Shown here: positions 35,760-63,819 of the stretch, piece by piece
How the letters are laid out: every line of letters starts with the position of its first letter
Position numbering within the stretch: position 1 is the stretch's first letter
DNA from: Trichococcus pasteurii
GTDB taxonomy: Bacteria; Bacillota; Bacilli; Lactobacillales; Aerococcaceae
Assembly (NCBI RefSeq): GCF_900112935.1
Contig: NZ_FONM01000009.1
Location: 1-64,000, forward strand
Reading direction: 5' to 3'
DNA length: 64,000 bases
The notes under the pieces: generated by a model
Databases searched by the model: none
What the model was told of the DNA's origin: nothing
What the model saw: the letters and a program-made list of their open reading frames with translations, nothing else
Program-made: the position numbers and the translations under genes

Positions 35760-35875
35760 AGCGGTCCAAGCCTGCCTCTCGGAAATTAGATAAATCTGAC
35801 CCATTGCGCTCTGCGATGCTCATTCAGGGCCAGATTTCCTAAATTTCTTTCGAGGCAGAGCGGGCTTGTACCGCT
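35760..35875. repeat. Type I modular intergenic element, copy A (short core)
   Basis: It lies between ecsB and the YtmP-like gene. The outer arms AGCGGTCCAAGCC and GGGCTTGTACCGCT pair, and the inner arms AAATCTG and CAGATTT pair. Between them are GCCTCTCGGAAATTAGAT, TTGCGCTCTGCGATGCTCA and GATTTCCTAAATTTCTTTC. It is the shortest of four related copies (others at 37521, 51136, 63572). The whole can fold into one long imperfect hairpin. In the remaining gap, 35466-35759, I see only a GCATCACC/GGTGC hairpin near 35701 and no gene. Confidence 0.75.
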
Positions 35876-35910
35876 TTTCAAAATTAATGACAGAGTAGGG
35901 AATGAGCTCG

Positions 35911-36708
35911 ATGGATTATAAAATGGACTCAGGGTGGCGGCTACATCCCATCGGAGGAGACACAGGACAAGCTTATATGGGCACCAGAGCCGAGGAAAGA
36001 GTTTTTTTGAAAAGAAACTCTTCACCTTTCTTAGCTGCGCTTTCCGTTGAGGGGATCACGCCGCGACTGATCTGGACCAAACGGGTCGGCAATGGGGATG
36101 TCCTGACAGCTCAAGAATGGCTTAACGGCAGGGAATTGAATCCGGATGAGATGAAAGGGAAGTCCGTGCGGGACATCCTGCATCGCATCCATCATTCCGA
36201 AAATCTCCTGAAGATGCTTCAGAAGGTAAAAGGGGAAATCTTCAACCCGATCAATTTCTACAACCTGTACGTTGCGGATCTGCCGGATGACCTGAAATCC
36301 AATTCAGTCCTGCAACAGGTGACTGAATATGTGAAGAACAGCATCGCCAGCATCGACGACTCGCAAAAGACGGTCTGCCACGGAGACGTGAATCGCAAAA
36401 ACTTCCTGTTGGATGAGGAAGACCGGTTGTACCTAGTGGATTGGGAAATGGTCAAAATAGCTGATCCGTTCTCAGACATCAGCACCTTGCTGGTTCAATA
36501 CGTTCCCTACGAGGAATGGGGAACATGGCTGGAGCAGTACGGTTTGCGGATGAATGACAATATGGAACGCCGGTTGGAGTGGTACAGCATGATGGTGTGC
36601 CTCTGCATGATCAAAAAGAGTCATTCGCAGGATCGTAATATGGAAATGAACCAATTGATTCTGTTGCTGAAAAAGCTTTATCAGAATCGCCTGAACAGTT
36701 ATTTATGA
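35911..36708 (+). CDS. Phosphotransferase of the choline/aminoglycoside kinase fold, YtmP-like
   Basis: A 265-residue kinase-like protein with WRLHPIGGDTGQAYMG as a glycine-rich start, the catalytic loop CHGDVNRKNFLL and the metal-binding LVDWEMVKIADP. In B. subtilis the matching ytmP gene also precedes trmB. The substrate is unknown; related proteins phosphorylate choline, thiamine or aminoglycosides. The ATG at 35911 is used because AGGG lies 10 bases upstream; an ATG three codons earlier is too close to it. It starts just behind a repeat element and no good promoter is seen between them. Confidence 0.8.
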   Translation: MDYKMDSGWRLHPIGGDTGQAYMGTRAEERVFLKRNSSPFLAALSVEGITPRLIWTKRVGNGDVLTAQEWLNGRELNPDEMKGKSVRDILHRIHHSENLLKMLQKVKGEIFNPINFYNLYVADLPDDLKSNSVLQQVTEYVKNSIASIDDSQKTVCHGDVNRKNFLLDEEDRLYLVDWEMVKIADPFSDISTLLVQYVPYEEWGTWLEQYGLRMNDNMERRLEWYSMMVCLCMIKKSHSQDRNMEMNQLILLLKKLYQNRLNSYL

Positions 36709-36750
36709 AATCCTCTTCGTCTTAAACGAACGGAAAGGATTTCTTTTTTC
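36707..36750 (+). terminator. Terminator after the YtmP-like gene
   Basis: Arms GAAATCCT (36707-36714, overlapping the stop codon) and AGGATTTC (36736-36743), inner CGTT/AACG pair, then TTTTTT. Confidence 0.8.
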
Positions 36751-36780
36751 GAAAAAAAACAGATAAGAAAGAGGAGAATT

Positions 36781-37446
36781 ATGCGCGTAAGAAATAAACC
36801 ATGGGCTGCCGAAAAATTGGCTGAGAGTACCCAATATGTAGTGATGGAACCAGCGGATTGGAAAGGGAAATGGCAGGAACGCTTCGGCAACGAGCAACCG
36901 ATCCATGTGGAAATCGGCTCCGGCAAGGGCCAGTTCATCGTCGAGATGGCTCGCATGCATCCGGAAGTGAATTATATCGGGATCGAACGTCAGACGAGTG
37001 TGGCGGTCATGACACTCGATAAAATGATCGAATCAGGCTTGAAAAATGTCCAATTGCTGAATACGGACGGAGAGAATGTAGCGGATTTCTTTGCGGAGGG
37101 CGAAGTGGATCGCGTCTACCTGAACTTTTCCGATCCGTGGCCAAAGTCCAAGCATGACAAACGCCGCTTGACCTACAAAAAATTCCTGCGGAACTATGAA
37201 CAGATCCTGGTTTCCGGCGGGGAGATCCATTTCAAGACGGATAACCAAGGCTTGTTCGAGTATTCGCTCGCAAGCTTCTCGCAGTACGGCATGACTTTAA
37301 AGCAAGTCTGGCTGGATCTGCACAAGAGCGATTTTGAGGGGAACATCATGACGGAGTATGAAGCGAAGTTCTCTTCAAGAGGAGACCGCATCTACCGTGT
37401 CGAAGCAGCGTTCCCGAAAAAAGAGACGGCTGATTCAGAAAAATAG
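36781..37446 (+). CDS. trmB: tRNA (guanine(46)-N7)-methyltransferase
   Basis: A 221-residue class I methyltransferase: SAM motif [15 protein letters not shown] (near 43-57), then NYIGIERQ and the TrmB-specific [18 protein letters not shown]. It makes m7G46 in the variable loop of tRNAs. AAGAGGAGAATT directly precedes the ATG. It follows the YtmP-like gene as in B. subtilis, although a terminator lies between. Confidence 0.95.
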
Positions 37447-37457
37447 CACACAAAACA

Positions 37458-37501
37458 AAAGGAAGGACCAAAGCTGCGAGTGCTTTGGTCCTTCCTTTTT
37501 T
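37458..37501 (+). terminator. Terminator after trmB
   Basis: Perfect 17-bp arms AAAGGAAGGACCAAAGC (37458-37474) and its complement (37482-37498), followed by T residues. Confidence 0.93.
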
Positions 37502-37520
37502 TGTGCAACTAATGATGTCC

Positions 37521-37887
37521 AGCGATCCAAGCCTGCCTCTCGGAAAGAGATGAAGGACCCCCTTGTCTCTGCGAGCCAAGGATACTGATCGACTAACCTG
37601 CTGACGCAAGAAATCTCTCAGCATGTTGCGCTCTTCGATACTCAGTTGCATGGGAGTCTTAGGGATTCATCCCTTAGAGTCCCAGTACAAGGTGACCGTA
37701 GGGAACGTTGCAGGGCACGATTTCCTAAATTGTCATGACTCTTGCGATTTCAATCGCTTAATCCTGTCATAAGGCCATCCAACCGGTCGCGCAGTGAGGC
37801 CCTCTGATGTCGCACTGTGACATCAGAGTACTTGACCGTTTAGGTCACAGTGTTTCCTTAATCGAGGCAGAGCGGGCTTGTATCGCA
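37521..37887. repeat. Type I modular intergenic element, copy B (longest)
   Basis: Outer arms GCGATCCAAGCC and GGGCTTGTATCGC pair; compared with copy A the AGCGGT/ACCGCT end has become GCGAT/ATCGC. Modules in order: a GAGAT...ATCTC segment with CCTTGTCTCTGCGAGCCAAGG; TTGCGCTCTTCGATACTCA; a hairpin insert TTAGGGATTCATCCCTTAG; GATTTCCTAAATT; GTCATGACTCTTGCGATTTC; a CTCTGAT-GTCGCACTGTGAC-ATCAGAG hairpin; CTTGACCGTTTAGGTCACAG; and GAGGCAGAGCGGGCTTG. It fills the gap between trmB and the convergent YtzB-like gene. No coding sense. Confidence 0.8.
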
Positions 37888-37896
37888 TTTCTTTTT

Positions 37897-38247
37897 TTAC
37901 AGTTTGTATAAGTCCAAAATGGTTCCTGTGTAGGCATCGGCGATGAATTCATATTGCACCAATACGCCTTCTTCTTTGCGGGAAATGCCGCCGTAATACA
38001 CATCCGTCTTTGAAGAATAACGGCTGAGCGGGACAGGATGCAGTTCGATCCATGAGCCTTCGATCGGAGCTTCAGCCAAGAACATCTTTTTGACGTTTTC
38101 CAGGATTTTATCGCCGTTTACAGTCCGTTTCTGTTCATAGCAAAGGGCTGTCACGACTGAACCAAGTACGAGTCCGGCTCCGAATAAAATACCGCCCAAG
38201 ATTTCTTCTTTGTGTTTTTTGCACATGCATTTTTCCAAAAAGTTCAT
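37897..38247 (-). CDS. Small membrane-anchored protein, YtzB-like (PepSY-type C-terminal half)
   Basis: A 116-residue protein. After a Lys/Cys-rich cytoplasmic start (MNFLEKCMCKKHKEE) comes one hydrophobic segment (ILGGILFGAGLVLGSVVTALCY) and an extracytoplasmic domain whose end, VLVQYEFIADAYTGTILDLYKL, looks like a PepSY repeat. A PepSY protein, YtzB, sits beside ytoP in B. subtilis, so the context agrees. The ATG at 38247 has GAGGAGGAAC upstream; the open frame continues further but without a site. Function unknown; PepSY domains often inhibit or regulate proteases. Confidence 0.65.
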   Translation of the reverse strand: MNFLEKCMCKKHKEEILGGILFGAGLVLGSVVTALCYEQKRTVNGDKILENVKKMFLAEAPIEGSWIELHPVPLSRYSSKTDVYYGGISRKEEGVLVQYEFIADAYTGTILDLYKL

Positions 38248-38352
38248 CTTATGTTCCTCCTCAAAGTAATGCGCTTTCTTAATTTCTCCCTTCAGTATAG
38301 CAATAATACGAAAAAAATAATAGGGAAATGTCACAAGCGGCAGGATGCACAA

Positions 38353-38366
38353 AGGAAACGTTTCCT
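38353..38366. promoter_or_regulatory. Perfect palindrome AGGAAACGTTTCCT, cre-like
   Basis: A 14-bp perfect palindrome between the divergent YtzB-like and YtoP-like genes. It matches the catabolite-responsive element consensus TGWAANCGNTNWCA except at the outermost bases. It may bind CcpA. Confidence 0.4.
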
Positions 38367-38399
38367 GTGCTGGACAATGCTTCTTAACGAATGGAATCG

Positions 38400-38428
38400 T
38401 TGCTATGACAAGGATGCTGCGCTATAAT
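38400..38428 (+). promoter_or_regulatory. Promoter of the ytoP-ytpP-ytpR group
   Basis: TTGCTA (38400-38405), 17-base spacer, TATAAT (38423-38428). Confidence 0.65.
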
Positions 38429-38484
38429 GGATAGGATAGTCAGACACTTAAGGGGGATCGGGAGCGGCATAAGGATAAATTTGT

Positions 38485-39579
38485 GTGCTGCTCCATTCAA
38501 ATATGGATGATAAAACATTTGCTATGATCAAAGAATTGACGGAATTGCAGGGAACAAGCGGAAACGAACGCAATATCCGTAACTATATGCGCGAGAGAAT
38601 GGCGCCATTGGTGGATCGCATCGAAACGGATGGCTTGGGCGGTATTTTCGGAATCAGAGAGCATGAAAATGAAACGGCACCGCGCATCATGGTGGCGGCA
38701 CATATGGATGAAGTTGGCTTCATGGTGGCAGGCATCACGGATCGGGGATTGTTCCGGGTTGTGCCGCTTGGAGGTTGGAATGCTTATGTCGTTTCGGCAC
38801 AGCGCTATACCCTGCAGACGTCCAAAGGCGATATACCTGTGATTTCTTCTTCCGTCCCGCCGCATTTATTGCGCGGGGAGGGTGAAGGCAAAAAAGTCAA
38901 AGTGACGGATATCCTGTTCGATGCCGGTTTCGATACGAAAGAAGAGGCGTTGGCATTCGGAGTCCGTCCAGGAGATACGATTGTTACCCAAGTGGAAACG
39001 ATCTGGACAGCCAACAAGAAGAAGATCATTTCAAAAGCGTGGGACAACCGCTACGGGAACACGGTTGTTTTGGAAACGCTGGAAGCATTGAAAAATGAAA
39101 AGTTGCCGAACACATTGATCGCCGGCGCAAATGTTCAGGAAGAGGTCGGACTGCGCGGGACAAAGGGGGCCGTTCACAAATTCAAGCCCGATCTGTTCTT
39201 CGCGGTGGACTGCTCCGCTGCGGACGATCTGACGACGACCAAGGATACGTTCGGGCATCTGGGAGAAGGTTTCCTTTTGCGGATCCAGGATCCCGGCATG
39301 ATCACCTTGAAAGGGATGCGCGAATTTCTGTTGGATACGGCGGAAACGCATGATATCCCTTATCAGTATTTCGTTTCCAAAGGCGGAACGGATGCGGGTG
39401 CCGCCCATGTCATGAACGACGGCGTGCCTAGCGCGGTCATCGGGGTCTGCGCCCGCTACATCCATACACACCAAACAATGTTCCACATCGACGATTATGC
39501 GGCGGCAAAGGAAATGGTCGCACAAGTCATCAAAGCGTTGGACAAGAGTACTTATGAAACCATCATGGCCATGAATTAA
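38485..39579 (+). CDS. M42-family aminopeptidase, YtoP-like
   Basis: A 364-residue dinuclear metallo-aminopeptidase. Metal ligands are in [35 protein letters not shown] and the GGTDAGAAH segment near the C terminus. Enzymes of this family remove N-terminal residues from short peptides and often form dodecamers. The start is uncertain: a GTG at 38485 has AAGGAT 8 bases upstream, while an ATG at 38503 fits family length better but has no site. Genes for YtpP and YtpR follow closely, as in B. subtilis. A paralogue lies at 58808-59893. Confidence 0.88.
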   Translation: MLLHSNMDDKTFAMIKELTELQGTSGNERNIRNYMRERMAPLVDRIETDGLGGIFGIREHENETAPRIMVAAHMDEVGFMVAGITDRGLFRVVPLGGWNAYVVSAQRYTLQTSKGDIPVISSSVPPHLLRGEGEGKKVKVTDILFDAGFDTKEEALAFGVRPGDTIVTQVETIWTANKKKIISKAWDNRYGNTVVLETLEALKNEKLPNTLIAGANVQEEVGLRGTKGAVHKFKPDLFFAVDCSAADDLTTTKDTFGHLGEGFLLRIQDPGMITLKGMREFLLDTAETHDIPYQYFVSKGGTDAGAAHVMNDGVPSAVIGVCARYIHTHQTMFHIDDYAAAKEMVAQVIKALDKSTYETIMAMN

Positions 39580-39593
39580 GGAGGAATGGGATT

Positions 39594-39905
39594 ATGGATA
39601 AACTGAAAGATTTGGATCAATTCAAAGAACTGCGCGATTCGGGAAAAACGGTATTCGTCTTCATGACCGGCTGGTGCCCGGACTGCCATTACATCCGCCC
39701 ATTCATGCCCGAGGTGGAAAGCAAGTTCGCGGATTTTCGTTTCGTCGAAATAGACCGCGACGATTTCGGCCCGCTGGGGGAAGCTTTGCAGATTTCCGGA
39801 ATACCGAGCTTTGTCGCTTATGATAAAGGAGAACTTTTGGGGCGTTTCGTTTCCCGCAACCGGAAGACGCAAAAAGAGATTGAAGCCTTTTTGGGCGAAT
39901 TGTGA
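39594..39905 (+). CDS. Thioredoxin-like protein YtpP
   Basis: A 103-residue thioredoxin fold with active site GWCPDCHY (C-P-D-C, near 28-31) and the cis-Pro segment SGIPSFVAY. The CPDC site differs from classic CGPC, as in YtpP-type proteins. It probably acts as a thiol-disulfide oxidoreductase in the cytosol; the partner is unknown. AAGGAGGAATGGGATT precedes the ATG; it lies 14 bases after the peptidase gene. Confidence 0.85.
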   Translation: MDKLKDLDQFKELRDSGKTVFVFMTGWCPDCHYIRPFMPEVESKFADFRFVEIDRDDFGPLGEALQISGIPSFVAYDKGELLGRFVSRNRKTQKEIEAFLGEL

Positions 39906-39958
39906 TACTATTTCGTTTGGGAAAAATAAATGAAGAAGCATAAAGGAGCAAACAAAAC

Positions 39959-40573
39959 ATGTGGTTAAGTTTTTATAATCGTGAAGCAGTCGGGGATACA
40001 TTATTATTGACAAAAGGGGATATCGCCGTCCGCCAAGAACAATCATGCGAATCGAAAGGGAATGTGACGCGCATTTTCAACAACCGTACAAATGAAACGA
40101 TGGGCTATAATCTGTTTTCGATTTCAGATGCGCTTACGTTGCATGCAAAGGGACAAGTTTTCCTTTCAGATGAAGAAGTCGCAAAAGTGAATGCTTTGAT
40201 CCAGGCGGCAGGTTTCAGTGACGCTGTCGTTGTCGATCGCTCACCTAAATTTGTTGTGGGTTACGTCAAGGAATGCGTGCCGCATGAAGACTCCGACCAT
40301 CTGTCCGTTACGCAAACGGAAGTGGACAACGGAGAAGTACTGCAGATCGTCTGCGGTGCAGCCAACATCAAAAAAGGGCAACGCGTCGTCGTAGCCAAAC
40401 CAGGCGCTGTCATGCCAAGCGGTTTGATCATCTGGCCAGGTGAATTGCGCGGCGTAGCCAGCCATGGCATGATCTGTTCAGCCAAAGAATTGCAGTTGGA
40501 AAACGCAAGCCCTAAAAAAGGCATACTTGTCTTGGATGACAGCTATACAATCGGCGCAGCGTTTTCTAAATAA
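39959..40573 (+). CDS. tRNA-binding domain protein YtpR
   Basis: A 204-residue protein. The C-terminal half (about 95-200) is an OB-fold tRNA-binding domain like that of the PheRS beta chain: VVGYVKECVPHEDSDHLSV, QIVCGAANIKKGQRVVVAKPGAVMPSG and ELRGVASHGMICSAKEL. The N-terminal half is the YtpR-specific DUF4479 region. Its role is not settled. AAAGGAGCAAAC precedes the ATG. Order ytoP-ytpP-ytpR is conserved, here without ytpQ. Confidence 0.88.
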   Translation: MWLSFYNREAVGDTLLLTKGDIAVRQEQSCESKGNVTRIFNNRTNETMGYNLFSISDALTLHAKGQVFLSDEEVAKVNALIQAAGFSDAVVVDRSPKFVVGYVKECVPHEDSDHLSVTQTEVDNGEVLQIVCGAANIKKGQRVVVAKPGAVMPSGLIIWPGELRGVASHGMICSAKELQLENASPKKGILVLDDSYTIGAAFSK

Positions 40574-40674
40574 TCCTATAGAATTATTCTTGAAAAAGAA
40601 GTACTATTATAAAGGAATTCCATTGAAACCGGGCATAGTATTGCCGGAAGCAAAATAAGAGAGGAGCAGACTGG

Positions 40675-41370
40675 ATGAGTCGCTATGATGGACCAAGTTT
40701 TTTTCGGCATGAACATCGTTCAGGAATGGATGGAAGTCATCCTGCAACAAATAAGTTTGATTTTCCGAATTACCTGAAAAAAGAGGATGAAGAGCATGGC
40801 ATGCTGGAAGAAAAAGGCGATTCTGCACAACCGTCCTCCTATATCTCGCAAGATTTGCTGCATCCGATGGACACAGTCCCGTACATCCGCCACAACAAGG
40901 AGGCATTCGTATCCTACAGGGATAAAGCTGTGAAGCCTGTTGAAGATGTTTTTGCGGTCGAGAAAAAAAGACTGAAGGAAGAAAAGCAGAAGGAGCGCCG
41001 CACGGAACTTGGCATGCATCCTTTCGCATCCTATAAAAGCAGAAGGCCTTTCCAACTGACCGAAGTACCGGAACCGTTGAAAGGCTGGGGAAACCTGAAT
41101 GAAAAGAAAATCGATTATCGCGCGATTGCGGCATTATTGAAGAAAAGCAGCTCGGACCTGCTTATTTTCGAACTGGGGGCACCTGTTGAAGACGATGCGA
41201 TTCTGGAAGAAGACAACGCGGGGGAAAGTGAGTTGCAACCGTTGGAAGGCAAATCCAAACGGGCAATGAACCGCTCGCTGTTGGGCATCATGGAGCAGGA
41301 ACGCTCATACGATGTAGCCGGAAAATTCGTCCATGAGGCTGCCGATTCGGTAAGCCACTCTTATTTTTAG
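40675..41370 (+). CDS. Uncharacterised protein at the sftA position; possible motor-less SftA relative
   Basis: A 231-residue hydrophilic protein with charged, probably disordered sequence and no membrane segment, Walker motif or other enzyme motif. Residues about 124-139 (RRPFQLTEVPEPLKGW) resemble the PFxxTEVPSPIxGx linker motif in the N-terminal part of SftA/FtsK-like DNA translocases. In B. subtilis sftA lies between ytpR and murC, exactly this place. It may be what is left of an SftA whose motor was lost, or a linker-only protein with a structural role. AGAGAGGAGCAGACTGG precedes the ATG, so it looks expressed. Confidence 0.6.
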   Translation: MSRYDGPSFFRHEHRSGMDGSHPATNKFDFPNYLKKEDEEHGMLEEKGDSAQPSSYISQDLLHPMDTVPYIRHNKEAFVSYRDKAVKPVEDVFAVEKKRLKEEKQKERRTELGMHPFASYKSRRPFQLTEVPEPLKGWGNLNEKKIDYRAIAALLKKSSSDLLIFELGAPVEDDAILEEDNAGESELQPLEGKSKRAMNRSLLGIMEQERSYDVAGKFVHEAADSVSHSYF

Positions 41371-41485
41371 TCATCGCGTTGTAACATTAGCTTGATTTGT
41401 ACGCTGCGGTTGATTTTGCAGTGAAATTATTGACATGTTTGACATCAAAGTTTAAATAATTTCATGCATTTTCTTAATCCGTGCG

Positions 41486-41494
41486 TGCTATACT
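41486..41494 (+). promoter_or_regulatory. Extended -10 promoter of murC
   Basis: TGC-TATACT at 41486-41494, about 115 bases before the murC ATG. A second possible promoter, TTGACA (41430-41435) with TTAAAT (41452-41457) at 16 bases, lies upstream. The leader between has GGACA/TGTCC and GAAGGT/ACCTTC stems. Confidence 0.5.
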
Positions 41495-41608
41495 GGTTCC
41501 GATTCAATAAATGGACAGCAAGTCATCATGTCCTGAGAGAGTGTTTTGAGGCACAAACATCAGAAGGTAGCCGAAAGACTAACCTTCCTTATTCATTTGG
41601 AGGTAATT

Positions 41609-42940
41609 ATGGAAACGGAAACGATTTATCATTTTGTCGGCATCAAAGGTTCTGGGATGAGTGCGTTGGCATTGATCCTGCATGGAAAAGGCTACAGAGT
41701 CCAAGGCTCCGATGTCGAAACTTATTTCTTTACGCAAAAAGGTTTGGATGATGCTGGCATCACAATCATGCCATTCAGCGAAGCGAACATCACACCGGGT
41801 CTGACAGTCATCGCAGGGAATGCTTTCCCTGATTCACATGAGGAAATCGCGAAAGCGAAAGAACTCGGTTTGACGGTTATCCGCTACCATGATTTCATAG
41901 GCGAATTGATCAAGAACTATACGAGCGTCGCCATTACCGGTTCACACGGCAAGACAAGCACAACCGGTTTGTTGTCCCATGTGTTGGACGGGATTGCCCC
42001 GACAAGCTATCTGATCGGAGATGGCACTGGTTTCGGCCGGGAAGATGCGGAGTACTTTGTGTTGGAAGCTTGCGAATACAGACGTCATTTCTTGGCTTAC
42101 TCACCAGACTACGCCATCATCACGAACATCGATTTCGATCACCCGGATTACTACCAGGACATCAATGATGTTTACAGCGCATTTGATACGTTTGCATCCC
42201 AAGTGAAAAAAGGCATCATCGCTTGTGGGGAAGATGCGTATGTCCGTGAGCTGAAAGGAAAATATCCTGTCACGTTTTATGGGTTCGCTGAAGACAATGA
42301 TGTTGTCGCCAAAAATGTCACGAAAGACACAAACGGCAGTCAGTTCGATGTGGAAATAAATGGCGAGCTGTTCGGTCATTTTGAAATCCCGTCATTCGGC
42401 ACGCACAACATCCTCAATTCATTGGCCATCATCACATTCTGCTGGTTGGAAGGTTTGGACAAAGACAAGGTTGCTGCCCAGCTCAAGACATTCTCAGGAG
42501 TAAAACGTCGCTTCAGCGAAAAATACATTTCGGATATGGTTGTCATCGACGATTATGCCCATCATCCATCCGAAATCCGCGCTACACTCGATGCAGCCAG
42601 ACAGAAATACCCTACTAAAGAAATCATTGCAATTTTCCAACCGCATACCTTCACGCGTACGGTTGCCCTGCTTAGCGAGTTCGCTGAGTCGCTGGAATTG
42701 GCCGACAAGGTCTTCCTTTGCGATATCTTCGGCTCTGCACGCGAAAAGGACGGACAGGTTTCGATCGGCGATTTGGCCGATAAAATCGAAAAAGGCGCAA
42801 CGGTATTGAACGTCAACAATATGTCTCCACTGTTGCAGTTCCATGATGCTGTAGCCATTTTCATGGGCGCGGGGGATGTTCAGAAATTTGAACTGGCTTA
42901 TGAAGAACTGTTGAGCCATAGCGTGCCGACAAAAAATTAA
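41609..42940 (+). CDS. murC: UDP-N-acetylmuramate--L-alanine ligase
   Basis: A 443-residue Mur ligase that adds L-Ala to UDP-MurNAc in the cytosol. Domain 1 starts with [15 protein letters not shown] (nucleotide binding), domain 2 has the ATP loop [12 protein letters not shown] and the [10 protein letters not shown] region, and domain 3 has [12 protein letters not shown] and [13 protein letters not shown] lies 5 bases before the ATG at 41609; earlier in-frame ATGs are rejected. The position after the ytpR/sftA site is conserved in Bacilli. Confidence 0.95.
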
Positions 42941-51097: not shown

Positions 51098-51135
51098 GCT
51101 GACGTTCAGCTTTTCTGCAATCAAAAGAGTTGGCT

Positions 51136-51315
51136 AGCTTCACGGGTAAGCCCTTCGGAAATTAGATAAATCGTGCCTATTGCGCTCTACGATGCTCAGT
51201 TGCATGGGACTTTTAGGGATTCATCCCTTAGAGTCCCAGTACAAGGTGACCGTAGGGAACGTTGCGTGGCTCGATTTCCTAAATTTCTTTCAGGGCTAAG
51301 CGAACCCGTTTAGCT
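51136..51315. repeat. Type I modular intergenic element, copy C (long core)
   Basis: Outer arms AGCTTCACGGGTAAGCCC and GGGCTAAGCGAACCCGTTTAGCT pair; inner arms AAATCG and CGATTT pair. The core has TTGCGCTCTACGATGCTCA and the insert TTAGGGATTCATCCCTTAG, nearly identical to copy B, while GGAAATTAGATAAAT and TTTCCTAAATTTCTTTC match copy A. It lies between dnaI and the promoter of thrS. From 51098 to 51135 only a small GCTGACGTTCAGC palindrome is seen. Confidence 0.78.
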
Positions 51316-51330
51316 TTTATTATATTAAAC

Positions 51331-56780: not shown

Positions 56781-56784
56781 GCGC

Positions 56785-57359: not shown

Positions 57360-57365
57360 ATAAAA

Positions 57366-57496: not shown

Positions 57497-57534
57497 TGCG
57501 TTCTTTCTCTCAAATATCATGGAGGTGAACGACC

Positions 57535-58050
57535 ATAGCAAAAGATATGATGGTTAACGACGGCATCCGTGCCCGCGAACTACGCATTATCGGTAGTGAC
57601 GGCGAGCAACTAGGAGTCAAATCGAAAAGTGATGCATTGCAGATTGCAGAAGCAGCAAATTTAGATTTAGTTTTGGTATCGCCAAATGCAAACCCGCCCG
57701 TTGCCCGTATTATGGATTACGGTAAGTTCCGTTTCGATCAACAAAAACGTGAACGTGAAGCCCGTAAAAACCAAAAAGTGGTAAGCCTTAAAGAAGTACG
57801 CTTGAGTCCTTCCATCGACGAAAATGATTTTCAAACGAAATTGCGGAATGCACGCAAATTCTTGGAAAAAGGTGACAAAGTGAAAGCATCGATCCGATTC
57901 AAAGGACGTGCCATCACCCACAAAGAAATCGGACAAAGGGTCCTTGATCGCCTTGCATCTGAGCTTACTGACGTTTCGACGATTGAATCTCATCCTAAAA
58001 TGGACGGAAGAAGCATGTTCTTGATGTTGGCGCCCAAAGCCGATAAATAA
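57535..58050 (+). CDS. infC: Translation initiation factor IF-3, with ATA start codon
   Basis: A 171-residue factor that controls start-codon choice on the 30S subunit: N-terminal domain to about residue 80 ([20 protein letters not shown]), linker with [16 protein letters not shown]-terminal domain with [14 protein letters not shown]. The start is placed at ATA 57535-57537: GGAGGTGA lies exactly 6 bases upstream, and the frame ATA GCA AAA GAT ATG ATG runs into the known protein. The first in-frame ATG (57547) would be 18 bases from that site. Rare AUN starts are a known self-control feature of infC. Confidence 0.93.
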
Positions 58051-58080
58051 ATTTGTAACTTAATTTAGGAGGAAAGACAA

Positions 58081-58281
58081 ATGCCAAAACAAAAAACTCA
58101 CCGTGGTTCAGCTAAACGTTTCAAAAGAACTGGTAACGGCGGACTAAAACGTTGGAGCGCTTTTACAAGCCATAGATTCCACGGAAAAACGAAGAAACAA
58201 AGACGTCAATTGCGTCAAGCTTCAATGGTTAGCGCATCTGATATCAAACGCATCAGCCAACAATTATCACAAATGAAATAA
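58081..58281 (+). CDS. rpmI: 50S ribosomal protein L35
   Basis: A 66-residue basic protein with the L35 start [19 protein letters not shown] and the RHRLRxxx-like basic middle. TTAGGAGGAAAGACAA precedes the ATG. It lies 30 bases after infC and 56 bases before rplT in the standard operon. Confidence 0.97.
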
Positions 58282-58337
58282 TTCTAAACAACAACAATAC
58301 GAGATAGAACCATGGTTCTAATAAGGAGGAAATCACT

Positions 58338-58697
58338 ATGCCACGTGTTAAAGGTGGGACAGTAACCCGTAAACGCCGCAAAAAGATTATTAAATTATCT
58401 AAAGGTTATTACGGTTCAAAACATACATTATTCAAAACAGCTAAAGAACAAGTAATGAAATCTTATACTTATGCTTACAGAGACCGTCGTCAAAAGAAAC
58501 GTGACTTCCGTAGATTATGGATTGCCCGTATCAACGCGGCTGCTCGCATCAACGGCATGAGCTACAGCACTTTGATCCACGGATTGAAACTTGCTGGTAT
58601 CGAAATGAACCGTAAAATGTTGGCTGACTTGGCTGTTACAGACGCTGCAGCTTTCACTGCGGTAGCTGAACAAGCTAAAGCTGCTTTGGCTAAATAA
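58338..58697 (+). CDS. rplT: 50S ribosomal protein L20
   Basis: A 119-residue protein with [19 protein letters not shown] and [19 protein letters not shown], diagnostic of L20. It binds 23S rRNA early in assembly and probably also the operon leader as an autoregulator. ATAAGGAGGAAATCACT precedes the ATG. Confidence 0.97.
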
Positions 58698-58706
58698 TTT
58701 TCTAAT

Positions 58707-58748
58707 CGCTGCCCTCCGGTCTTTGACCGGAAGTGCGGCGTTTTTTTG
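58707..58748 (+). terminator. Terminator after rplT
   Basis: Hairpin with TCCGGTC (58715-58721) and GACCGGA (58725-58731) plus outer CGC-n-GC/GCGGCG pairs, then seven T residues. Confidence 0.9.
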
Positions 58749-58764
58749 TTTTTCATAGAGTAAA

Positions 58765-58773
58765 TGCTATACT
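58765..58773 (+). promoter_or_regulatory. Extended -10 promoter of the second M42 peptidase gene
   Basis: TGC-TATACT at 58765-58773, 35 bases before the start codon; the -35 (TTGTTT, 58747-58752) is at 15 bases, so it is weak. Confidence 0.5.
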
Positions 58774-58807
58774 GATATTATGTCAGTAAATCAATGGGGG
58801 TATCATT

Positions 58808-59893
58808 TTGGAAAAGAAAGAATTACAGATGCTGATCGATTTGACGGATGCGAGAGGCGTTCCGGGCAACGAAGGGGAGGTCCGAGAAGTCTTCAGACGC
58901 TACGCGGAACCTTTCGCCGAAAGCTTTTCGCAGGACGGATTGGGAGGTCTTTTTGCCAAACATGCGGGTACAGAAGATGGGCCGACCATTTTGTTGGCGG
59001 GGCACTTGGATGAAGTGGGTTTTATGGTCACGAGCATTACCGAGAAGGGTTTCATCAAATTCCAAACTTTGGGTGGCTGGTGGAATCAGGTCATGCTGGC
59101 CCAGCAGGTGGAAATCACCAACTCAAAAGGCGAGCGCTGCCACGGGGTCATCGGCTGCAAGCCTCCGCATGTGCTGACGCCGGAAGCGCGCAAAAAGCCG
59201 TATGAAATCAAAGATATGTTCATCGACATCGGCGCTTCTTCGAAAGAACAAGCAGCGGAATGGGGCATCAAACCCGGCGACATGATTACGCCGTACATTT
59301 CCTTCAAACGCATGAACGATTCAAAATTCCTTTTGGCGAAAGCTTGGGACAACCGCATCGGACTGGCCGTTGCGCTGAGAGTGTTGGAAAATGTCGCAAA
59401 AGCTGGGCATCCGAATGTGATCTTCAGCGGCGGGAATGTTCAGGAGGAAGTAGGTCTGCGCGGTGCGAAGACGGCCACGCATATGATCCGTCCGGACATC
59501 GCGTTTGCTTTGGATACAGGAACTGCCGGGGATACTCCGGGAATGACGCCTCAAGAAGCGGATTCCGAATTAGGAAAAGGGCCGCAATTATTGATTTATG
59601 ACGCATCGATGATCCCGCACCGGGGCTTACGCGATTTCATCGTCGGTGTTGCCGAAGAATGCGAAATTCCGTTCCAGTACACGGTCATTACAGGCGGTGG
59701 AACGGATGCAGGCGCCCAACATCAGAGTTTGGATGGCATTCCTTCCTTCGCGATCACTGTGCCGGTACGTTATCTGCATTCGCACACTTCCATGATCCAT
59801 GAAGATGATTATCTGAATGCGGTCAAATTGGTCACCGAATTAGTCAAACGCTTGGATGCGGAAACAGTCAAACAGATCCGCGAAAACGTCTAA
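58808..59893 (+). CDS. M42-family aminopeptidase, second copy
   Basis: A 361-residue dinuclear metallo-aminopeptidase with [36 protein letters not shown] and the GGTDAGAQH segment. It is a paralogue of the product at 38485-39579 (similar length and all metal ligands present), but has LGGWWNQVM where that one has LGGWNAYVV. The TTG start has AATGGGGG 7 bases upstream; the next Met is residue 8. It stands alone after the rplT terminator. Confidence 0.88.
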
Positions 59894-60011
59894 AAACGCG
59901 AACGGGATGAATATCTGTCGAAAAGTATCCACATATTTTCGGTGGTGGATAGAGTAAGATATAGATAGTGATTAATTAGGCGTCAAGAAAGAAAAAGGAG
60001 GGGATGGAAGG

Positions 60012-61442
60012 ATGGAGAAGATGAAAAGACGTATCGCGATCATCGGCGGCGGACTTAGGGGATTGACAGCCGCTTATGAAATCGATAAAGCCATCCGGGA
60101 ACAAAACCTCCCGTTTGAGTATGTCGTTCTGGAGGATCGAGCCGCTGTGGGCGGCATGATCCATACGATTGAAATGGACGGGTATGCGTTTGATGTAGGC
60201 GCATCAGCTTTCGATTCGAGACGGGCGGATATTTCCGGATTTTTGAAGGAATTGAGCTTGGAATCCGAAATTCAATTCAGCAAAGGCGGGAAACTGGTGC
60301 TGTTCGATGGGACTGCGGTCATGGATGACACTATGATGACTTATCACGGCATGCCGCTTTTCCCTAATGATATTTGGCAGGCAAATGGATTGACCTTGGA
60401 TGCAAAGCTCCGGGCGTTCATGAACAGCATTTTCCTGTCCAAGGACCTGCATGAGAACCCTGAGTATTCAACCGACAACTTTTTGGAATTCCGTTTGGGA
60501 CGGGAAGTGGTCGACTATATGGCTGAGCCCTATTATCCGGATAACGTCTATGGCTCCATGGAATTGATGCCGGTGAAGTTATTCGATGAAAATTTGGTGA
60601 CCATCTACGGAAAGGCGCATATCGGAAAGCACAAAAAAGAGCAGCTGATGCGTTTTGCGGATGGATCCGGCCAGGAGTATACCTTCAAAGAAGGCTTGGC
60701 AACCTTAACCAAATGCCTGGCCCAGCGTACGGAAGGCCATCTATACGTGAATCAGAAAGTGAAGTCGTTGAACAGCGTGGCGGAGGACCTGCTGTTGATC
60801 GAATTGAATGGGCGTGAATCCATGCGTGCTGGGAGTGTTGTGGTCACAACAAATCCCCAGGAATCCCTTGGGTTTTTGGAAGGTCTGACCAGTGAAATTG
60901 CTATCCCGAAAGCTCAAAGCACCAGTGTGGGCACAGTTTTTTTCAAAATAAACAAAAGGGCAGTCAAAAACTTGCCTGAAGGGCAAGGGTTTGTGATTCC
61001 GCGAAGAAGTTCCTATCATAGCACCAAAGTTGTCGTTCTGAACAACAAATGGCCGCTGCTCGAGCAGGCGGAACATTATTATGTACTTGTGGAATTCGGC
61101 AGATGTTTGGAAGAAACCTTGATAGAATTAGCTGATGATCTCGTGATGGATATCATCAAGAAAGAAGTGAAGGAAATTTTGACTTTGACTGAAGAGCCTC
61201 TACAGGTCACTTTTTATCGCTGGGAAAAGGCCGTACCGCATTTCAGTCTGCATCAAAGACAAGAGATGTTGGGTGAAGATTATCCAGTCAATAGCGAGTA
61301 TGCAAAAAGAGGCATTTTTGTCGGAGGAAATGGAATCACTGGTTATGGGATGGAAAATGCCATCATAGAGGGGAAACGCTTAGCAGATGAGGCAATCCGC
61401 TACATGAAAAAAATGGAAAAGAATGACAGTCCGAATGCATGA
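60012..61442 (+). CDS. HemY-like FAD-dependent oxidoreductase (protoporphyrinogen/coproporphyrinogen oxidase family)
   Basis: A 476-residue flavoprotein. The Rossmann motif IAIIGGGLRGLTAAYE (8-23) and the GG-motif VVLEDRAAVGGMIHT bind FAD; ALGASAF-like FDVGASAF and the C-terminal GIFVGGNGITGYGMENAIIEG complete the HemY/CgoX layout. Family members oxidise coproporphyrinogen III or protoporphyrinogen IX, but no other haem gene is in the window and most lactic acid bacteria do not make haem. The substrate is therefore uncertain. AAAAGGAGGGGATGGAAGG precedes the ATG; residue 4 is a second Met. Confidence 0.8.
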   Translation: MEKMKRRIAIIGGGLRGLTAAYEIDKAIREQNLPFEYVVLEDRAAVGGMIHTIEMDGYAFDVGASAFDSRRADISGFLKELSLESEIQFSKGGKLVLFDGTAVMDDTMMTYHGMPLFPNDIWQANGLTLDAKLRAFMNSIFLSKDLHENPEYSTDNFLEFRLGREVVDYMAEPYYPDNVYGSMELMPVKLFDENLVTIYGKAHIGKHKKEQLMRFADGSGQEYTFKEGLATLTKCLAQRTEGHLYVNQKVKSLNSVAEDLLLIELNGRESMRAGSVVVTTNPQESLGFLEGLTSEIAIPKAQSTSVGTVFFKINKRAVKNLPEGQGFVIPRRSSYHSTKVVVLNNKWPLLEQAEHYYVLVEFGRCLEETLIELADDLVMDIIKKEVKEILTLTEEPLQVTFYRWEKAVPHFSLHQRQEMLGEDYPVNSEYAKRGIFVGGNGITGYGMENAIIEGKRLADEAIRYMKKMEKNDSPNA

Positions 61443-61444
61443 TG

Positions 61445-61494
61445 AAACAGTCCGCCTATCTGTATGGTTACAGAGAAGGGTGGACTGTTTTTTG
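61445..61494 (+). terminator. Terminator after the HemY-like gene
   Basis: Arms AAACAGTCC (61445-61453) and GGACTGTTT (61482-61490), then TTTT. Confidence 0.85.
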
Positions 61495-61522
61495 AATTCG
61501 GGTAGTGTTTCTTTTTATTTGG

Positions 61523-61531
61523 TGCTATAAT
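61523..61531 (+). promoter_or_regulatory. Upstream extended -10 promoter of the yhfI-lplA group
   Basis: TGC-TATAAT at 61523-61531; no clear -35. It gives a leader of about 140 bases. Confidence 0.5.
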
Positions 61532-61605
61532 GAATCCGTTGATGTTTAACTGTTATCTATCTATATAAAAACTGTTTCTTTTTGTTGCCGTGAAATAGTT
61601 TGCGA

Positions 61606-61633
61606 TTGTCGATGGCTGAAGGCGTGTTATAAT
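61606..61633 (+). promoter_or_regulatory. Downstream promoter of the yhfI-lplA group
   Basis: TTGTCG (61606-61611), 16-base spacer, TATAAT (61628-61633) with TGT before it (extended -10). Confidence 0.65.
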
Positions 61634-61680
61634 CAGAACAGGATTCTTTGCTTATCAGATATTGGATTGGAGGACGTTGA

Positions 61681-62421
61681 ATGGAATTGACTATTTTGGG
61701 CTGCATGGGCGGCTATCCTACAAAAGATGTCGGGACGACAGCTTATCTGCTGACATCTGAGGATTTCAAACTGTTGATCGACGCAGGCAGCAATGCGCTG
61801 TTGTCACTGGAGCATCATCTGGACCCGTTGGATTTGGATGCGGTCATCCTGACGCATTATCACGCAGACCATATTGCGGATTTGGGTGTCCTGCAATATA
61901 CTTTTCAGCTGAAAGAGCCTGCAGTTGGAAAATCGAAAAAAATATTGCCGATATACGGTCATGCTGAATCGGAATTCTTCCGCTTGTTGGAGATGCCGGG
62001 GGTGAGTGAAGGGATTGCCTATGCTCCGGAGGAGATGTTGGAATTGGGGCCATTCCGGATCCATTTTTTGAAAACCATCCATCCGGTCCCGTGCTATGCG
62101 TTGCGGATCGAGGAAATAGCCACCGGAAAAGTCTTCGTTTTCGGGGCGGATTCAGCCTATTTACCGGCATTTGTGCCTTTTGTGAAGGATGCTGACCTGT
62201 TCTTGGCTGATGCCAATCTGTTCAACGGCAACGAGCGTCATCATGCGCATATGACCGCAGGTGAAGTCGGGACGATAGCTGAAGAAGCCGCAGTTAAACA
62301 GCTGATCCTGACACACTTGCCGCAAAAAGGCGAGCTATCCGTGCTGTTGGACCAAGCGAAAGAGTCTGCGCCGTCCGTGTCTGTAACGCTGGCCGAAAAG
62401 GATCGGATCATCACCATCTGA
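61681..62421 (+). CDS. MBL-fold metallohydrolase, YhfI-like
   Basis: A 246-residue metallo-beta-lactamase-fold protein of the RNase Z-like group. The metal site is ILTHYHADHIADLG (HxHxDH), with later His in KTIHPVPCYAL and ILTHLPQKG and Asp in FGADSAY. It lacks the RNase Z exosite, so a phosphodiesterase or related hydrolase is more likely; the substrate is unknown. TTGGAGGACGTTG precedes the ATG. The lipoate ligase gene follows, the same pair as yhfI-lplJ in B. subtilis. Confidence 0.86.
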   Translation: MELTILGCMGGYPTKDVGTTAYLLTSEDFKLLIDAGSNALLSLEHHLDPLDLDAVILTHYHADHIADLGVLQYTFQLKEPAVGKSKKILPIYGHAESEFFRLLEMPGVSEGIAYAPEEMLELGPFRIHFLKTIHPVPCYALRIEEIATGKVFVFGADSAYLPAFVPFVKDADLFLADANLFNGNERHHAHMTAGEVGTIAEEAAVKQLILTHLPQKGELSVLLDQAKESAPSVSVTLAEKDRIITI

Positions 62422-62482
62422 TCGTATCCATCAAACGGAATGAAACAACAAATCAAATGAAGAATGGGAGAGGAATAGGCAT

Positions 62483-63490
62483 ATGTATTTTGTAGATAAT
62501 CAAGGACAGTTGGATCCCAGCGTTAATATTGCGTTGGAGACATTTTTATTGAAGGAAAAAATCTTGGACGAGCCGATTCTGTTGTTCTATATCAATGAAC
62601 CGTCGATCATCATCGGCCGCAATCAGAATACGATAGAAGAAATCAATGCGGACTATGTCGAAGCGAATAAGATACATATCGTGCGCCGTATGTCCGGGGG
62701 CGGCGCAGTATACCACGACCTAGGGAACTTTTCATTCTGCTTCATCACGAAGGATGACGGTGATTCTTTCCGCGATTTCGGGAAATTCACAAAGCCGGTC
62801 ATTTCCTTTTTGCATAGCGTAGGCGTCAAGGAAGCTGAATTAAAAGGAAGGAACGACTTGGTCATCGGAGAGAAAAAATTCTCGGGGAATGCCATGTACG
62901 CGACAAACGGAAGAATGACGGCCCATGGGACGATCCTATTCGACTCTGATTTGGATGCCGTAACCAGTGCGTTGAAACCGCGCAAAGAGAAAATCGAATC
63001 GAAAGGCATCAAGTCGATCCGCAGCCGCGTGACCAACATCAAACCATTTGTTGATGAGGCATATCAAAATTTGACGACTGAACAATTCCGCGATTTGATG
63101 TTGCTTTCGATTTTTGATGTCGAGACGCGCGAGGAAGTAAAAGAATACCATTTGACTGATGAGGATTGGAAACGCGTATATGAAATCCGCGAAGAGTACT
63201 TCGGTAACTGGGATTGGAATTACGGTAAGTCGCCTAAATTCGAAATCCAAAAACATCATCGTTTTCCGATCGGATCCATTGAAGTCCGCTTGAATGTTGA
63301 AGAGGGTCATATCCAACAGCTGAAGATTTTCGGAGATTTCTTTGGATTGGGTGAAATCAAGGATGTTGAGGATGCATTTATCGGCGTCAAATACGCCAAA
63401 GAGGACATCCTGGCCAAATTGAAGGAACTTGACATCAAGAAATACTTCGGCAATGTTACAGCGGAAGAATTGCTCGAAGAATTGTACTGA
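62483..63490 (+). CDS. Lipoate--protein ligase
   Basis: A 335-residue ligase of the LplA/LplJ type. The catalytic domain (about 1-240) has VRRMSGGGAVYHDLGN (lipoyl-AMP loop), the active Lys in EKKFSGNAMYATNGRMTAHGTIL, and SIRSRVTNI; the C-terminal domain (about 250-335) is the accessory lid. It attaches free lipoate to E2 and GcvH proteins. AGAGGAATAGGCAT precedes the ATG. It is downstream of the YhfI-like gene by 61 bases and ends at a terminator. Confidence 0.94.
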   Translation: MYFVDNQGQLDPSVNIALETFLLKEKILDEPILLFYINEPSIIIGRNQNTIEEINADYVEANKIHIVRRMSGGGAVYHDLGNFSFCFITKDDGDSFRDFGKFTKPVISFLHSVGVKEAELKGRNDLVIGEKKFSGNAMYATNGRMTAHGTILFDSDLDAVTSALKPRKEKIESKGIKSIRSRVTNIKPFVDEAYQNLTTEQFRDLMLLSIFDVETREEVKEYHLTDEDWKRVYEIREEYFGNWDWNYGKSPKFEIQKHHRFPIGSIEVRLNVEEGHIQQLKIFGDFFGLGEIKDVEDAFIGVKYAKEDILAKLKELDIKKYFGNVTAEELLEELY

Positions 63491-63494
63491 TAAA

Positions 63495-63530
63495 GAAAGA
63501 GAAGCCCCGCAATGCGGAGCTTCTCTTTTG
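63495..63530 (+). terminator. Terminator after the lipoate ligase gene
   Basis: Perfect 10-bp arms AAAGAGAAGC (63496-63505) and GCTTCTCTTT (63519-63528) with an inner CCGCA/TGCGG stem. Confidence 0.88.
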
Positions 63531-63540
63531 CATCATTATG

Positions 63541-63819
63541 GCTGAACGAACCCGTTCAGCATTTCTTGTCCAGCTTCACGAGTTAGCCCTTCGGAAAGGA
63601 CAAAGGAACCCCTTGTCTCTACGAGCCAAGGATACTATTCGACTAACCTGCTGACGCAGGAAGTCTCTCAGCATATTGCGCTCTACGATGCTCATACGGT
63701 ATGATTTCCTAAATTGTCATGACTCTTGCGATTTCAATCGCTTAGAGACATGATACACTTGACCGTTTAGGTCACAGTGTTTCCTTAATCAGGGCTAAAC
63801 CAACTCGTTCAGCATTTCT
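63541..63819. repeat. Type I modular intergenic element, copy D, with flanking 14-bp direct repeat
   Basis: Main body 63572-63813. Outer arms AGCTTCACGAGTTAGCCC and GGGCTAAACCAACTCGTTCAGC pair; relative to copy C the ACGGGT/ACCCGT pair is now ACGAGTT/AACTCGT. Modules: CCTTGTCTCTACGAGCCAAGG as in copy B, TTGCGCTCTACGATGCTCA, short core, GATTTCCTAAATT, GTCATGACTCTTGCGATTTC and CTTGACCGTTTAGGTCACAG as in copy B, AGGGCTAA end as in copy C. A hairpin GCTGAACG/CGTTCAGC precedes it, and CGTTCAGCATTTCT occurs on both sides (63553-63566, 63806-63819). It fills the gap between lplA and trpS. Confidence 0.78.

What the first reader, a model, noticed from the sequence alone, without database searches (positions are those of the whole stretch)
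35760..63819. A four-copy family of modular intergenic elements with co-varying complementary ends
Copies at 35760-35875, 37521-37887, 51136-51315 and 63572-63813 share a core (TTGCGCTCTRCGATGCTCA ... GATTTCCTAAATT), but their ends are of two kinds (GCCTCTCGGAAA/GAGGCAGAGC in A and B; CCCTTCGGAAA/AGGGCTAA in C and D). In each copy the two ends are complementary, and the differences between copies are compensated: AGCGGT/ACCGCT in A, GCGAT/ATCGC in B, ACGGGT/ACCCGT in C, ACGAGTT/AACTCGT in D. The inner arms also covary (AAATCTG/CAGATTT in A, AAATCG/CGATTT in C). This argues for selection on a folded RNA or on cruciform-forming DNA rather than chance repeats. The design recalls streptococcal BOX elements, but I do not recognise the sequence.
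Basis: seen in the sequence. Interest (0 to 1): 0.8.

Follow-up and report, generated by a model that had tools for sequence, protein, structure and literature searches.

The report
Terminator-docking mobile hairpin elements
The four repeats are copies of a small mobile DNA element, present in up to more than a hundred copies per genome in a range of Bacilli, that keeps its two halves complementary and, in the two groups studied closely, tends to insert just behind the stop signals of genes, where it probably does little harm.

Summary
The window comes from a Trichococcus-related genome with 35 copies of the core; all 13 genomes of the genus searched carry the element. Covariance models find the folded body in 22 of 80 sampled genera of its order and 26 of 146 of class Bacilli, up to 117 copies per genome (cap). 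Complementarity is maintained: 39 of 41 pairs change on both sides. No Rfam family matches. Empty orthologous sites show insertion; at one site related species hold nothing, the short form, or forms with one or two extra modules, so modules come and go in place. The full unit is a leader plus a ~120-nt hairpin body ending in GCTTTTC(TTA). Its left end tends to lie directly behind an intrinsic terminator's T-tract (31 of 40 near-identical copies in two genomes versus 10 of 800 control positions), though not in every genus. Its own 3' end makes such a T-tract, which would explain head-to-tail arrays. I read it as a non-autonomous mobile DNA element whose folded hairpin is recognised by an unidentified enzyme. 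RNA selection is not excluded; mismatch types lean weakly against it. It works like BOX, ERIC or bcr1; membership was not shown.

The parts
35641..35672 (+). intrinsic terminator (hairpin plus T-rich tract) directly upstream of copy A, the docking site
   Evidence: sequence; present in the empty sites of related genomes
35674..35752 (+). copy A: 5' leader with its own hairpin (GTGCAT..ATGCAC); part of the inserted unit
   Evidence: absent together with the body in 8 of 13 genomes; 21 of 25 hits of a leader query in the own genome adjoin a body, the other 4 are weak (positions compared by eye)
35753..35879 (+). copy A: hairpin body, short form, ending GCTTTTC
   Evidence: R1 138 bits, E 4.8e-38 (copy A is among the training rows); R2 E 6.6e-30
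37460..37502 (+). intrinsic terminator and T-tract directly upstream of copy B
   Evidence: sequence; similar terminators in the empty sites
37514..37891 (+). copy B: long form without the full leader; carries modules M1 (5' of the core), M2 (after the core), M3 and nested M4 (3' arm)
   Evidence: 93% identical over 331 nt to the copy at G000:C26:466134-466464; among 13 genomes: long form here, empty in 6, short form in 1, remnants or deletion derivatives in 3, unrelated repeats in 1, an opposite-strand copy in 1
37626..37644 (+). copy B: core TTGCGCTCTTCGATACTCA
37645..37713 (+). copy B: module M2 (approximate limits)
   Evidence: shared with copy C, repeat D3
37732..37859 (+). copy B: module M3 with nested M4 (approximate limits); M3/M4-like sequence also occurs outside this family
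   Evidence: C14:95341-95448 matches query 210-314; L018 and L025
51098..51115 (+). relic of an older copy's 3' terminal hairpin and T-tract, just upstream of copy C
   Evidence: sequence
51129..51319 (+). copy C: body with module M2 in the apical position
   Evidence: R1 107 bits, E 6.7e-29
63500..63529 (+). intrinsic terminator upstream of the D locus
   Evidence: sequence
63540..63567 (+). relic 3' end of a neighbouring copy (GGCTGAACGAACCCGTTCAGCATTTCTT); copy D starts directly after it (tandem arrangement)
   Evidence: sequence; repeat D9; weak R2 match 63464-63565, E 0.003
63565..63818 (+). copy D: body with modules M1 and M3, without M2
   Evidence: R1 36 bits, E 5.7e-8; repeats D4-D6

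Best explanation
These are copies of a non-coding, non-autonomous mobile DNA element. SHOWN: the unit is a ~120-nt imperfect hairpin body (longer with nested modules), in many Trichococcus copies with a 5' leader; its arms are kept complementary across genera while a 4x4 mismatch loop (AGAT/CCTA), small bulges and the TTTT tail keep their sequence. It inserts: orthologous sites are filled in some species and empty in others. In Trichococcus and in two genomes of a related genus the left end tends to sit on one side of intrinsic terminators, directly behind the T-tract. Bursts of near-identical copies exist, and a near-identical subfamily occurs in genomes of several families and on Enterococcus plasmids. 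INFERRED: an enzyme supplied in trans recognises the folded single-stranded (or extruded) DNA hairpin with its conserved mismatches and joins it behind the T-tract; because the element itself ends in hairpin + CTTTTCTTA it makes a new docking site, giving head-to-tail arrays; docking behind terminators is a safe haven that spares host genes. Modules are swapped in place by recombination between copies.
For: Copies: 35 cores in the own genome; 13 of 13 Trichococcus genomes; 124 of 395 genomes of the order at E <= 0.01, 74 of 398 of the class at E <= 1e-4. Mobility: site A empty in 8 of 13 genomes, short in 3, +M2 in 1, +M2+M3 in 1; 26 automatic filled/empty pairs, about ten of them misplaced or poorly aligned and several from the same site. 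Docking: 38 of 40 left junctions have at least 6 T in the last 9 nt and 31 of 40 have T-tract plus stable hairpin, versus 10 of 800 control positions; 0 of 40 on the right side read from the other strand (the 40 were picked by me from the top of the capped list). Trichococcus leaders: 44 of 71 versus 26 of 426 control windows. Covariation. Unpaired columns carry more sequence information (0.92 bits, n=38) than paired ones (0.68, n=81). Arrays with a period of mostly 119-122 nt. Strand bias in G225, 76 of 117 copies listed: 27 of 33 minus below 1.3 Mb, 36 of 40 plus from 1.3 to 2.8 Mb, 3 of 3 minus above; the same strand is the G-rich one in the fetched flanks. Horizontal spread: L317-L319 and L321, and L333 with a few more differences, and Enterococcus plasmids. 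G-T 116 versus A-C 128 mismatches.
Against: No enzyme was found. Y1 transposase was not found in 9 of 21 element-bearing genomes, including single-contig G368 with 110 copies, and G276's single Y1 match has a stop; RVT_1 was not found in 7 of 13 Trichococcus genomes, two of them incomplete. Target duplications are inconsistent: 7 nt at one site, 3-4 nt at others depending on where the 3' end is put, about 0-1 at another; in 10 of the 40 copies the left end reads TTTG where the right reads TTA. Docking is not universal: in genus g37 several copies lie directly before a ribosome-binding site or after a stop codon without a T-tract. 27 of 71 Trichococcus leader junctions lack a terminator by my criterion, and 59 of 146 Trichococcus copies lack the full leader. 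The strand bias could simply follow gene direction. Outer stems alone show G-T 56 versus A-C 35 (naive p 0.035), a mild lean to RNA, inner stems 60 versus 93.
Confidence: 0.58

Rival explanations
1. A retro-mobile RNA element (a bacterial SINE-like unit): the terminated transcript is copied by a reverse transcriptase such as that of a group IIC intron, whose introns also target terminators, and integrated at T-tracts.
For: Fixed 3' end in a T-tract and two 5' forms (87 of 146 copies match a leader model from positions 1-30, 51 only from position 51 on, 8 not at all); short, variable duplications; terminator preference as described for group IIC introns (passages of PMC7923331); RVT_1 in 6 of 13 Trichococcus genomes.
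Against: RVT_1 not found in 7 of 13 Trichococcus genomes that hold copies (two are incomplete, so 5 of 11 good ones); G-T mismatches no more frequent than A-C overall; the plus strand folds more stably than minus in only 17 of 112; 5' ends are bimodal rather than ragged; no intron-like ends or domain V seen by eye; the leader would have to be transcribed from outside.
Confidence: 0.15
2. A cis-acting regulatory RNA (attenuator or terminator-like) that has been duplicated and kept for function: the 3' arm alone can form a terminator (GCTGAACG..CGTTCAGC-TTTT) that competes with the long hairpin.
For: Strong covariation; a local 3' hairpin can be read by eye in many type C and Enterococcaceae-like copies and is the predicted fold in a few, such as L002 and L008; several g37 copies lie directly upstream of a ribosome-binding site; in seven Streptococcus-like genomes a copy shares its upstream sequence, in three of them directly followed by the same gene start; mild G-T excess in the outer stems.
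Against: Presence/absence at orthologous sites and near-identical bursts show spread without site conservation; the local terminator hairpin is weak in type A copies (by eye); G-T/A-C near parity overall.
Confidence: 0.17
3. Complementarity is kept not by selection but by intrastrand template switching during replication, which mends imperfect palindromes; the repeats are otherwise inert relics.
For: Equal G-T and A-C mismatches overall and mostly Watson-Crick pairs (3570 of 4133 cells).
Against: The AGAT/CCTA loop and the TC and AACG bulges stay mismatched and conserved, although such correction would tend to erase them; bursts with precise ends.
Confidence: 0.1

Closest known systems
BOX elements of Streptococcus pneumoniae (PMC3049150, passages read)
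   Same: Small interspersed repeats, modular (67-637 bp there), tightly folded, probably parasitic.
   Different: BOX is boxA-(boxB)n-boxC with tandem boxB, terminal inverted repeats likened to ISSpn2 and target duplications, found in S. pneumoniae, less in S. mitis and rarely in other streptococci. Here modules are nested inside one hairpin, ends dock at terminators in the groups studied, and the range spans many Bacilli genera.
bcr1 and other bcr repeats of the Bacillus cereus group (PMC6542083, PMC3446304, passages read)
   Same: High-copy, MITE-like, tied to a T-rich motif (TTTAT), often within UTRs; folding and site-by-site presence/absence of bcr1 are partly recalled.
   Different: Described as confined to the B. 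cereus group; no terminator docking in the passages seen; sequence relation untested.
ERIC sequences (mostly recalled; PMC2267715 passages call it a single long stem-loop)
   Same: ~127-bp imperfect palindrome, intergenic, mover unknown (size and mover recalled).
   Different: Enterobacterial (recalled); copy A with its leader has no match in 20,395 E. coli records.
Efa-1 of Enterococcus faecalis (PMC2267715, passages read)
   Same: 163-bp structured intergenic repeat in a lactic acid bacterium, 65 sequences detected (18 in brackets in that table); could be a relative.
   Different: Predicted as a pair of adjacent stem-loops; sequence not available to compare.
Group IIC introns (PMC7923331, passages read)
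   Same: Insert behind Rho-independent terminator or attC stem-loops.
   Different: Ribozyme with intron-encoded RT; none of its parts seen here.

Membership tests
BOX element | A-(B)n-C module order with tandem boxB | tested here: not met
   Modules are nested insertions at different points of one hairpin; no tandem internal unit seen by eye
BOX element | sequence similarity to boxA/boxC | not tested
   BOX sequences not held by the tools
MITE (DDE-transposase type) | terminal inverted repeats at the very ends plus a fixed-length target duplication | tested here: not met
   Units start ACATATAGG or TAGACTAGGGG and end GCTTTTCTTA, not complementary; duplications of 0-7 nt, inconsistent. The arms further in are complementary
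IS200/IS605-derived (Y1/HUH) element | insertion 3' of a short fixed target without duplication (recalled) | tested here: inconclusive
   T-tract on the left in 38 of 40 copies, but a 7-nt duplication at one clean site
IS200/IS605-derived (Y1/HUH) element | Y1 transposase available in bearing genomes | tested here: inconclusive
   12 of 13 Trichococcus genomes; 12 of 21 bearing genomes; absence today does not exclude past presence
group II intron (ORF-less, class C) | catalytic domain V and intron ends | tested here: not met
   No Rfam group II match in the window at gathering threshold nor in four loci with copies at E up to 10; intron ends looked for by eye only
group II intron (ORF-less, class C) | insertion behind terminators | tested here: met
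   in Trichococcus and genus g12
REP/REPIN | 20-40 bp palindrome (PMC3733652 abstract) with a RAYT transposase (recalled) | tested here: not met
   Body is ~120 nt; no Y1 protein found in 9 of 21 bearing genomes
bcr1 (B. cereus group) | sequence homology and TTTAT motif | not tested
   No bcr1 sequence held; T-rich ends are a resemblance only
any Rfam 15 family | match at gathering threshold | tested here: not met
   13 matches in the window, 12 tRNAs and one L20 leader, none over a copy; at E up to 10 only hits far below their gathering scores overlap or adjoin copies in L002 and L007

The most novel reading that the evidence does not exclude
A previously undescribed, Bacilli-wide class of mobile elements that uses intrinsic transcription terminators as docking sites, carries a terminator-like end so that every insertion creates a new dock, and builds itself from exchangeable hairpin cassettes also shared with unrelated repeats; its mover may be a new single-strand DNA enzyme or an RNA-based one.
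Probability: 0.38. Interest if true: 0.85.

Novelty: new variant of a known kind. Interest (0 to 1): 0.68.

Why it matters
If right, one element family links many unexplained intergenic repeats in streptococci, enterococci, carnobacteria and other Bacilli, and shows a second route, besides group IIC introns, by which a mobile element uses transcription terminators as safe havens. It gives a natural system of hundreds of copies in which hairpin recognition, module exchange and insertion targeting can be tested, and a likely unknown mover enzyme to be found. It also warns that strong covariation does not by itself mean functional RNA.

Tried and rejected
Rejected: chance repeats. Autonomous copy: two Enterococcus plasmids hold only the left half; in AP031372 an annotated IS6 transposase begins 307 nt further on, so an IS interruption is likely; LR962532 has no annotation there. 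Phage carriage: copy B has no match in phages; the three viral-contig pattern hits look like chance by their surroundings. RT or Y1 as the mover: neither supported nor excluded. Efa-1, bcr1, BOX: no sequences to compare. Plasmid searches with five other subtypes gave no match; the flank search showed no clear empty plasmid site (listing only). A promoter inside the leader was considered, not tested. Cross-genus leader: four of 48 loci exceed the best of 384 controls (18.8-26.1 against 16.9), so reported as limited; at lower cut-offs upstream and control rates are alike or nearly so. RNAalifold on A2 found only part of the hairpin and its column-shuffle control was uninformative; the structure was mapped from one member, so cells-paired leans to it; the covariation measures are the stronger evidence. 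The tRNA control counts only pairs that ARAGORN draws, so its zero A-C says nothing; only its G-U share (52 of 604) can be compared.

Dropped rows and caps: 55 de-duplicated short forms, 54 aligned in A1 (one L128 copy left out). A2 used 35 of the 41 loci L311-L351 plus 3 Trichococcus copies; left out were L314, L317, L321, L333 (near duplicates), L345 (long insert) and L339 (poor fold). A3 came from 69 loci, many of them training rows of R2. Chance pattern hits in other organisms (L133, L153, L155, L171, L197, L200, L203, L224-L226) were dropped. Copies scored per genome were capped at 8, 9 and 117.
Full report
WHAT IS THERE. The four copies are real. Copy A is the short form (body 35753-35879 with leader 35674-35752); B is the longest (37514-37891); C has one extra module; D has two. 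The core TTGCGCTCTNCGATNCTCA occurs at 35 places in the genome with 0-1 mismatches, against 2 control matches with up to 3. All 13 genomes of the genus searched have matches at E <= 0.001, 9 to 52 each.

ARCHITECTURE. Of 154 pattern hits with enough flank in fetched loci, simple sequence rules called 76 short forms, 16 with M2 only, 15 M1 only, 11 M1+M2, 17 M1+M2+M3, 2 M1+M3, 1 M3 only and 16 unclassified; the unclassified are nine chance hits in unrelated organisms and seven true copies. The short body folds into one long hairpin in most short copies. M2 sits in the apical region, M1 replaces the 5' inner arm, M3 (with nested M4) lies in the 3' arm; in L007 an M3-like module sits inside M1. 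M3/M4-like sequence also occurs in a different repeat (L018, L025). Leaders: of 146 copies, 87 match a leader model from positions 1-30, 51 only from position 51 on, 8 not at all.

COVARIATION. On 54 de-duplicated short forms (53 of the genus, one E. faecium) RNAalifold predicts 33 pairs, 15 with compensatory changes; many of these reflect one switch between the A and C end types. On 38 bodies across genera the evidence is much stronger: 81.7% of cells paired against 62.9% shuffled, 39 of 41 pairs with both-side changes, 305 such cells against 97, covariation 0.490 against 0.178, none of 500 shuffles as high in any of the five measures; slid structures reach 0.188. Related rows inflate such counts, and the structure came from one of the rows.

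RANGE. Model R1 matches 124 of 395 genomes of the order at E <= 0.01 (22 of 80 genera). Model R2 matches 74 of 398 genomes of the class at E <= 1e-4 (26 of 146 genera), including genomes of 12 families outside the order. E-values are rough. One subfamily is almost identical in genomes of several families (L317, L318, L319, L321; L333 with a few more differences) and on Enterococcus plasmids (11 E. faecium records with 94% of the query covered at 97.6%; two more Enterococcus records with the left half), which means recent horizontal spread.

IT MOVES. At site A the window genome, G007 and G009 hold the short form, G003 the form with M2, G012 the form with M2 and M3, and 8 of 13 genomes are empty. 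The same insertion with different module sets shows that modules are gained or lost in place. At site B 6 of 13 are empty, one holds a short form, three hold remnants or deletion derivatives, one unrelated repeats, one an element on the other strand, and the window genome the long form. Of 26 automatic filled/empty pairs about ten are misplaced or poorly aligned and several are the same site seen twice or more. Clean junctions: L041/L136 with a 7-nt duplication TGATGCC; L136/L236, L168/L131 and L116/L139 with apparent 3-4 nt duplications if the 3' end is put at GCTTTTC; L265/L277 with about none.

WHERE IT LANDS. I took 33 copies of G225 and 7 of G276 from the top of the list. All 40 begin TAGACTAG, and most stand straight behind a T-tract that closes a terminator hairpin. 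By a fixed criterion 38 of 40 have at least 6 T in the last 9 bases, 31 of 40 also a hairpin of -6 kcal/mol or better; of 800 random positions in the same flanks 10 do; on the right side, read from the other strand, 0 of 40. In Trichococcus 44 of 71 distinct full-leader junctions pass against 26 of 426 control windows. The right end is GCTTTTCTTA in 38 of 40, itself like a terminator tail, and in arrays the next unit starts directly after it with a period of mostly 119-122 (in G225 some pairs are 158 apart). This is the basis for the self-seeding idea, which is inferred. It does not hold everywhere: several copies in genus g37 sit directly before a ribosome-binding site or after a stop codon.

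RNA OR DNA. Stems hold 3570 Watson-Crick, 116 G-T and 128 A-C cells out of 4133 in 112 aligned copies, although the aligner favours G-U. A selected RNA should tolerate G-U and not A-C (general knowledge). Against this, in the 23 outer pairs alone G-T is 56 and A-C 35 (naive p 0.035), in the 15 inner pairs 60 and 93. The minus strand folds more stably in 94 of 112, the plus strand in 17; for 27 tRNAs the plus strand does in 20. In G225 the version with GACCTA/TAGGCC arms, an A-C mismatch on the plus strand, was itself amplified (17 of the 33 copies fetched, my reading). Unpaired positions are better conserved than paired ones: 0.92 against 0.68 bits. I therefore lean to recognition of a folded DNA hairpin, moderately.

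MOVER. Unknown. RVT_1 occurs in 6 of 13 Trichococcus genomes (6 of 11 good ones), Y1 transposase in 12 of 13 and in 12 of 21 element-bearing genomes, not found for example in single-contig G368. Strand bias in G225 (of 76 listed: 27 of 33 minus below 1.3 Mb; 36 of 40 plus from 1.3 to 2.8 Mb; 3 of 3 minus above; flank GC skew -0.086 and +0.110) fits insertion into the lagging-strand template but also plain co-direction with genes (upstream ORF co-directed 20, opposite 8, unclear 12 of 40). No clear bias was seen by eye in the Trichococcus genomes G009 and G012 (one search list).

WHAT IS KNOWN. No Rfam family covers a copy at its threshold. Eight literature searches (listings with abstract starts) showed no description of this family. 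Read as passages only: PMC3049150 (BOX, RUP, SPRITE), PMC2267715 (structured repeat families including Efa-1), PMC6542083 and PMC3446304 (bcr repeats), PMC7923331 (group IIC introns and terminators). Efa-1 may be a relative; its sequence is not in the text I saw.

VERDICT. A true, widespread, mobile family with an unusual and well supported landing preference in two studied groups; new as far as I could search, but of the general kind of small interspersed hairpin repeats.

Noticed in passing
window 24700-24970 (+), also L018:1360-1790 and L025:1350-1590: A second modular hairpin repeat family (units with ..CCTAAGCTGA..TCCTCTTAGTGCTC..) that carries M3/M4-like modules resembling those inside copy B, so hairpin cassettes seem to be shared between unrelated repeats.
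   Followed up: partly
window 24495-24680: About three and a half tandem copies of a 52-nt unit (GAATCGGACAAGCGGAGAGCG...) right upstream of that second repeat.
   Followed up: no
L346, L350 (= L375), L366, L368, L370, L376, L379: In seven Streptococcus-like genomes a divergent copy shares its upstream sequence, and in three of them (L350, L366, L368) it stands directly upstream of the same gene start (AGGAGAGGTCATGGCTGATGATAAG); in the others another unit follows. Hints at a long-kept or domesticated copy.
   Followed up: no
L122, L143, L145, L149, L163, L168 and others (MUZD01 records): Records titled Sedimentibacter sp. SX930 have contig lengths equal to those of G008 (709087, 253349, 197256), which the genome set lists as the same genus as the window: probably a mislabelled Trichococcus.
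   Followed up: partly
L256, about 3968-4476: In G007 the site of copy B holds unrelated tandem repeats (GCCGACAGATG...GATCAGGTCACCGTCC...) between two terminators instead of the element.
   Followed up: no
L227:2690-3124, L317, L408: One near-identical copy next to a LacI/PTS sugar region on E. faecium plasmids has the same upstream sequence as copies in G225 and G307, so the copy travelled with its neighbourhood.
   Followed up: partly
window 6524-6733 / 9911-10120 and 5927-6088 / 11340-11501: Diverged inverted and direct repeats (74% and 71%) in the first part of the window; not examined, perhaps paralogous genes.
   Followed up: no
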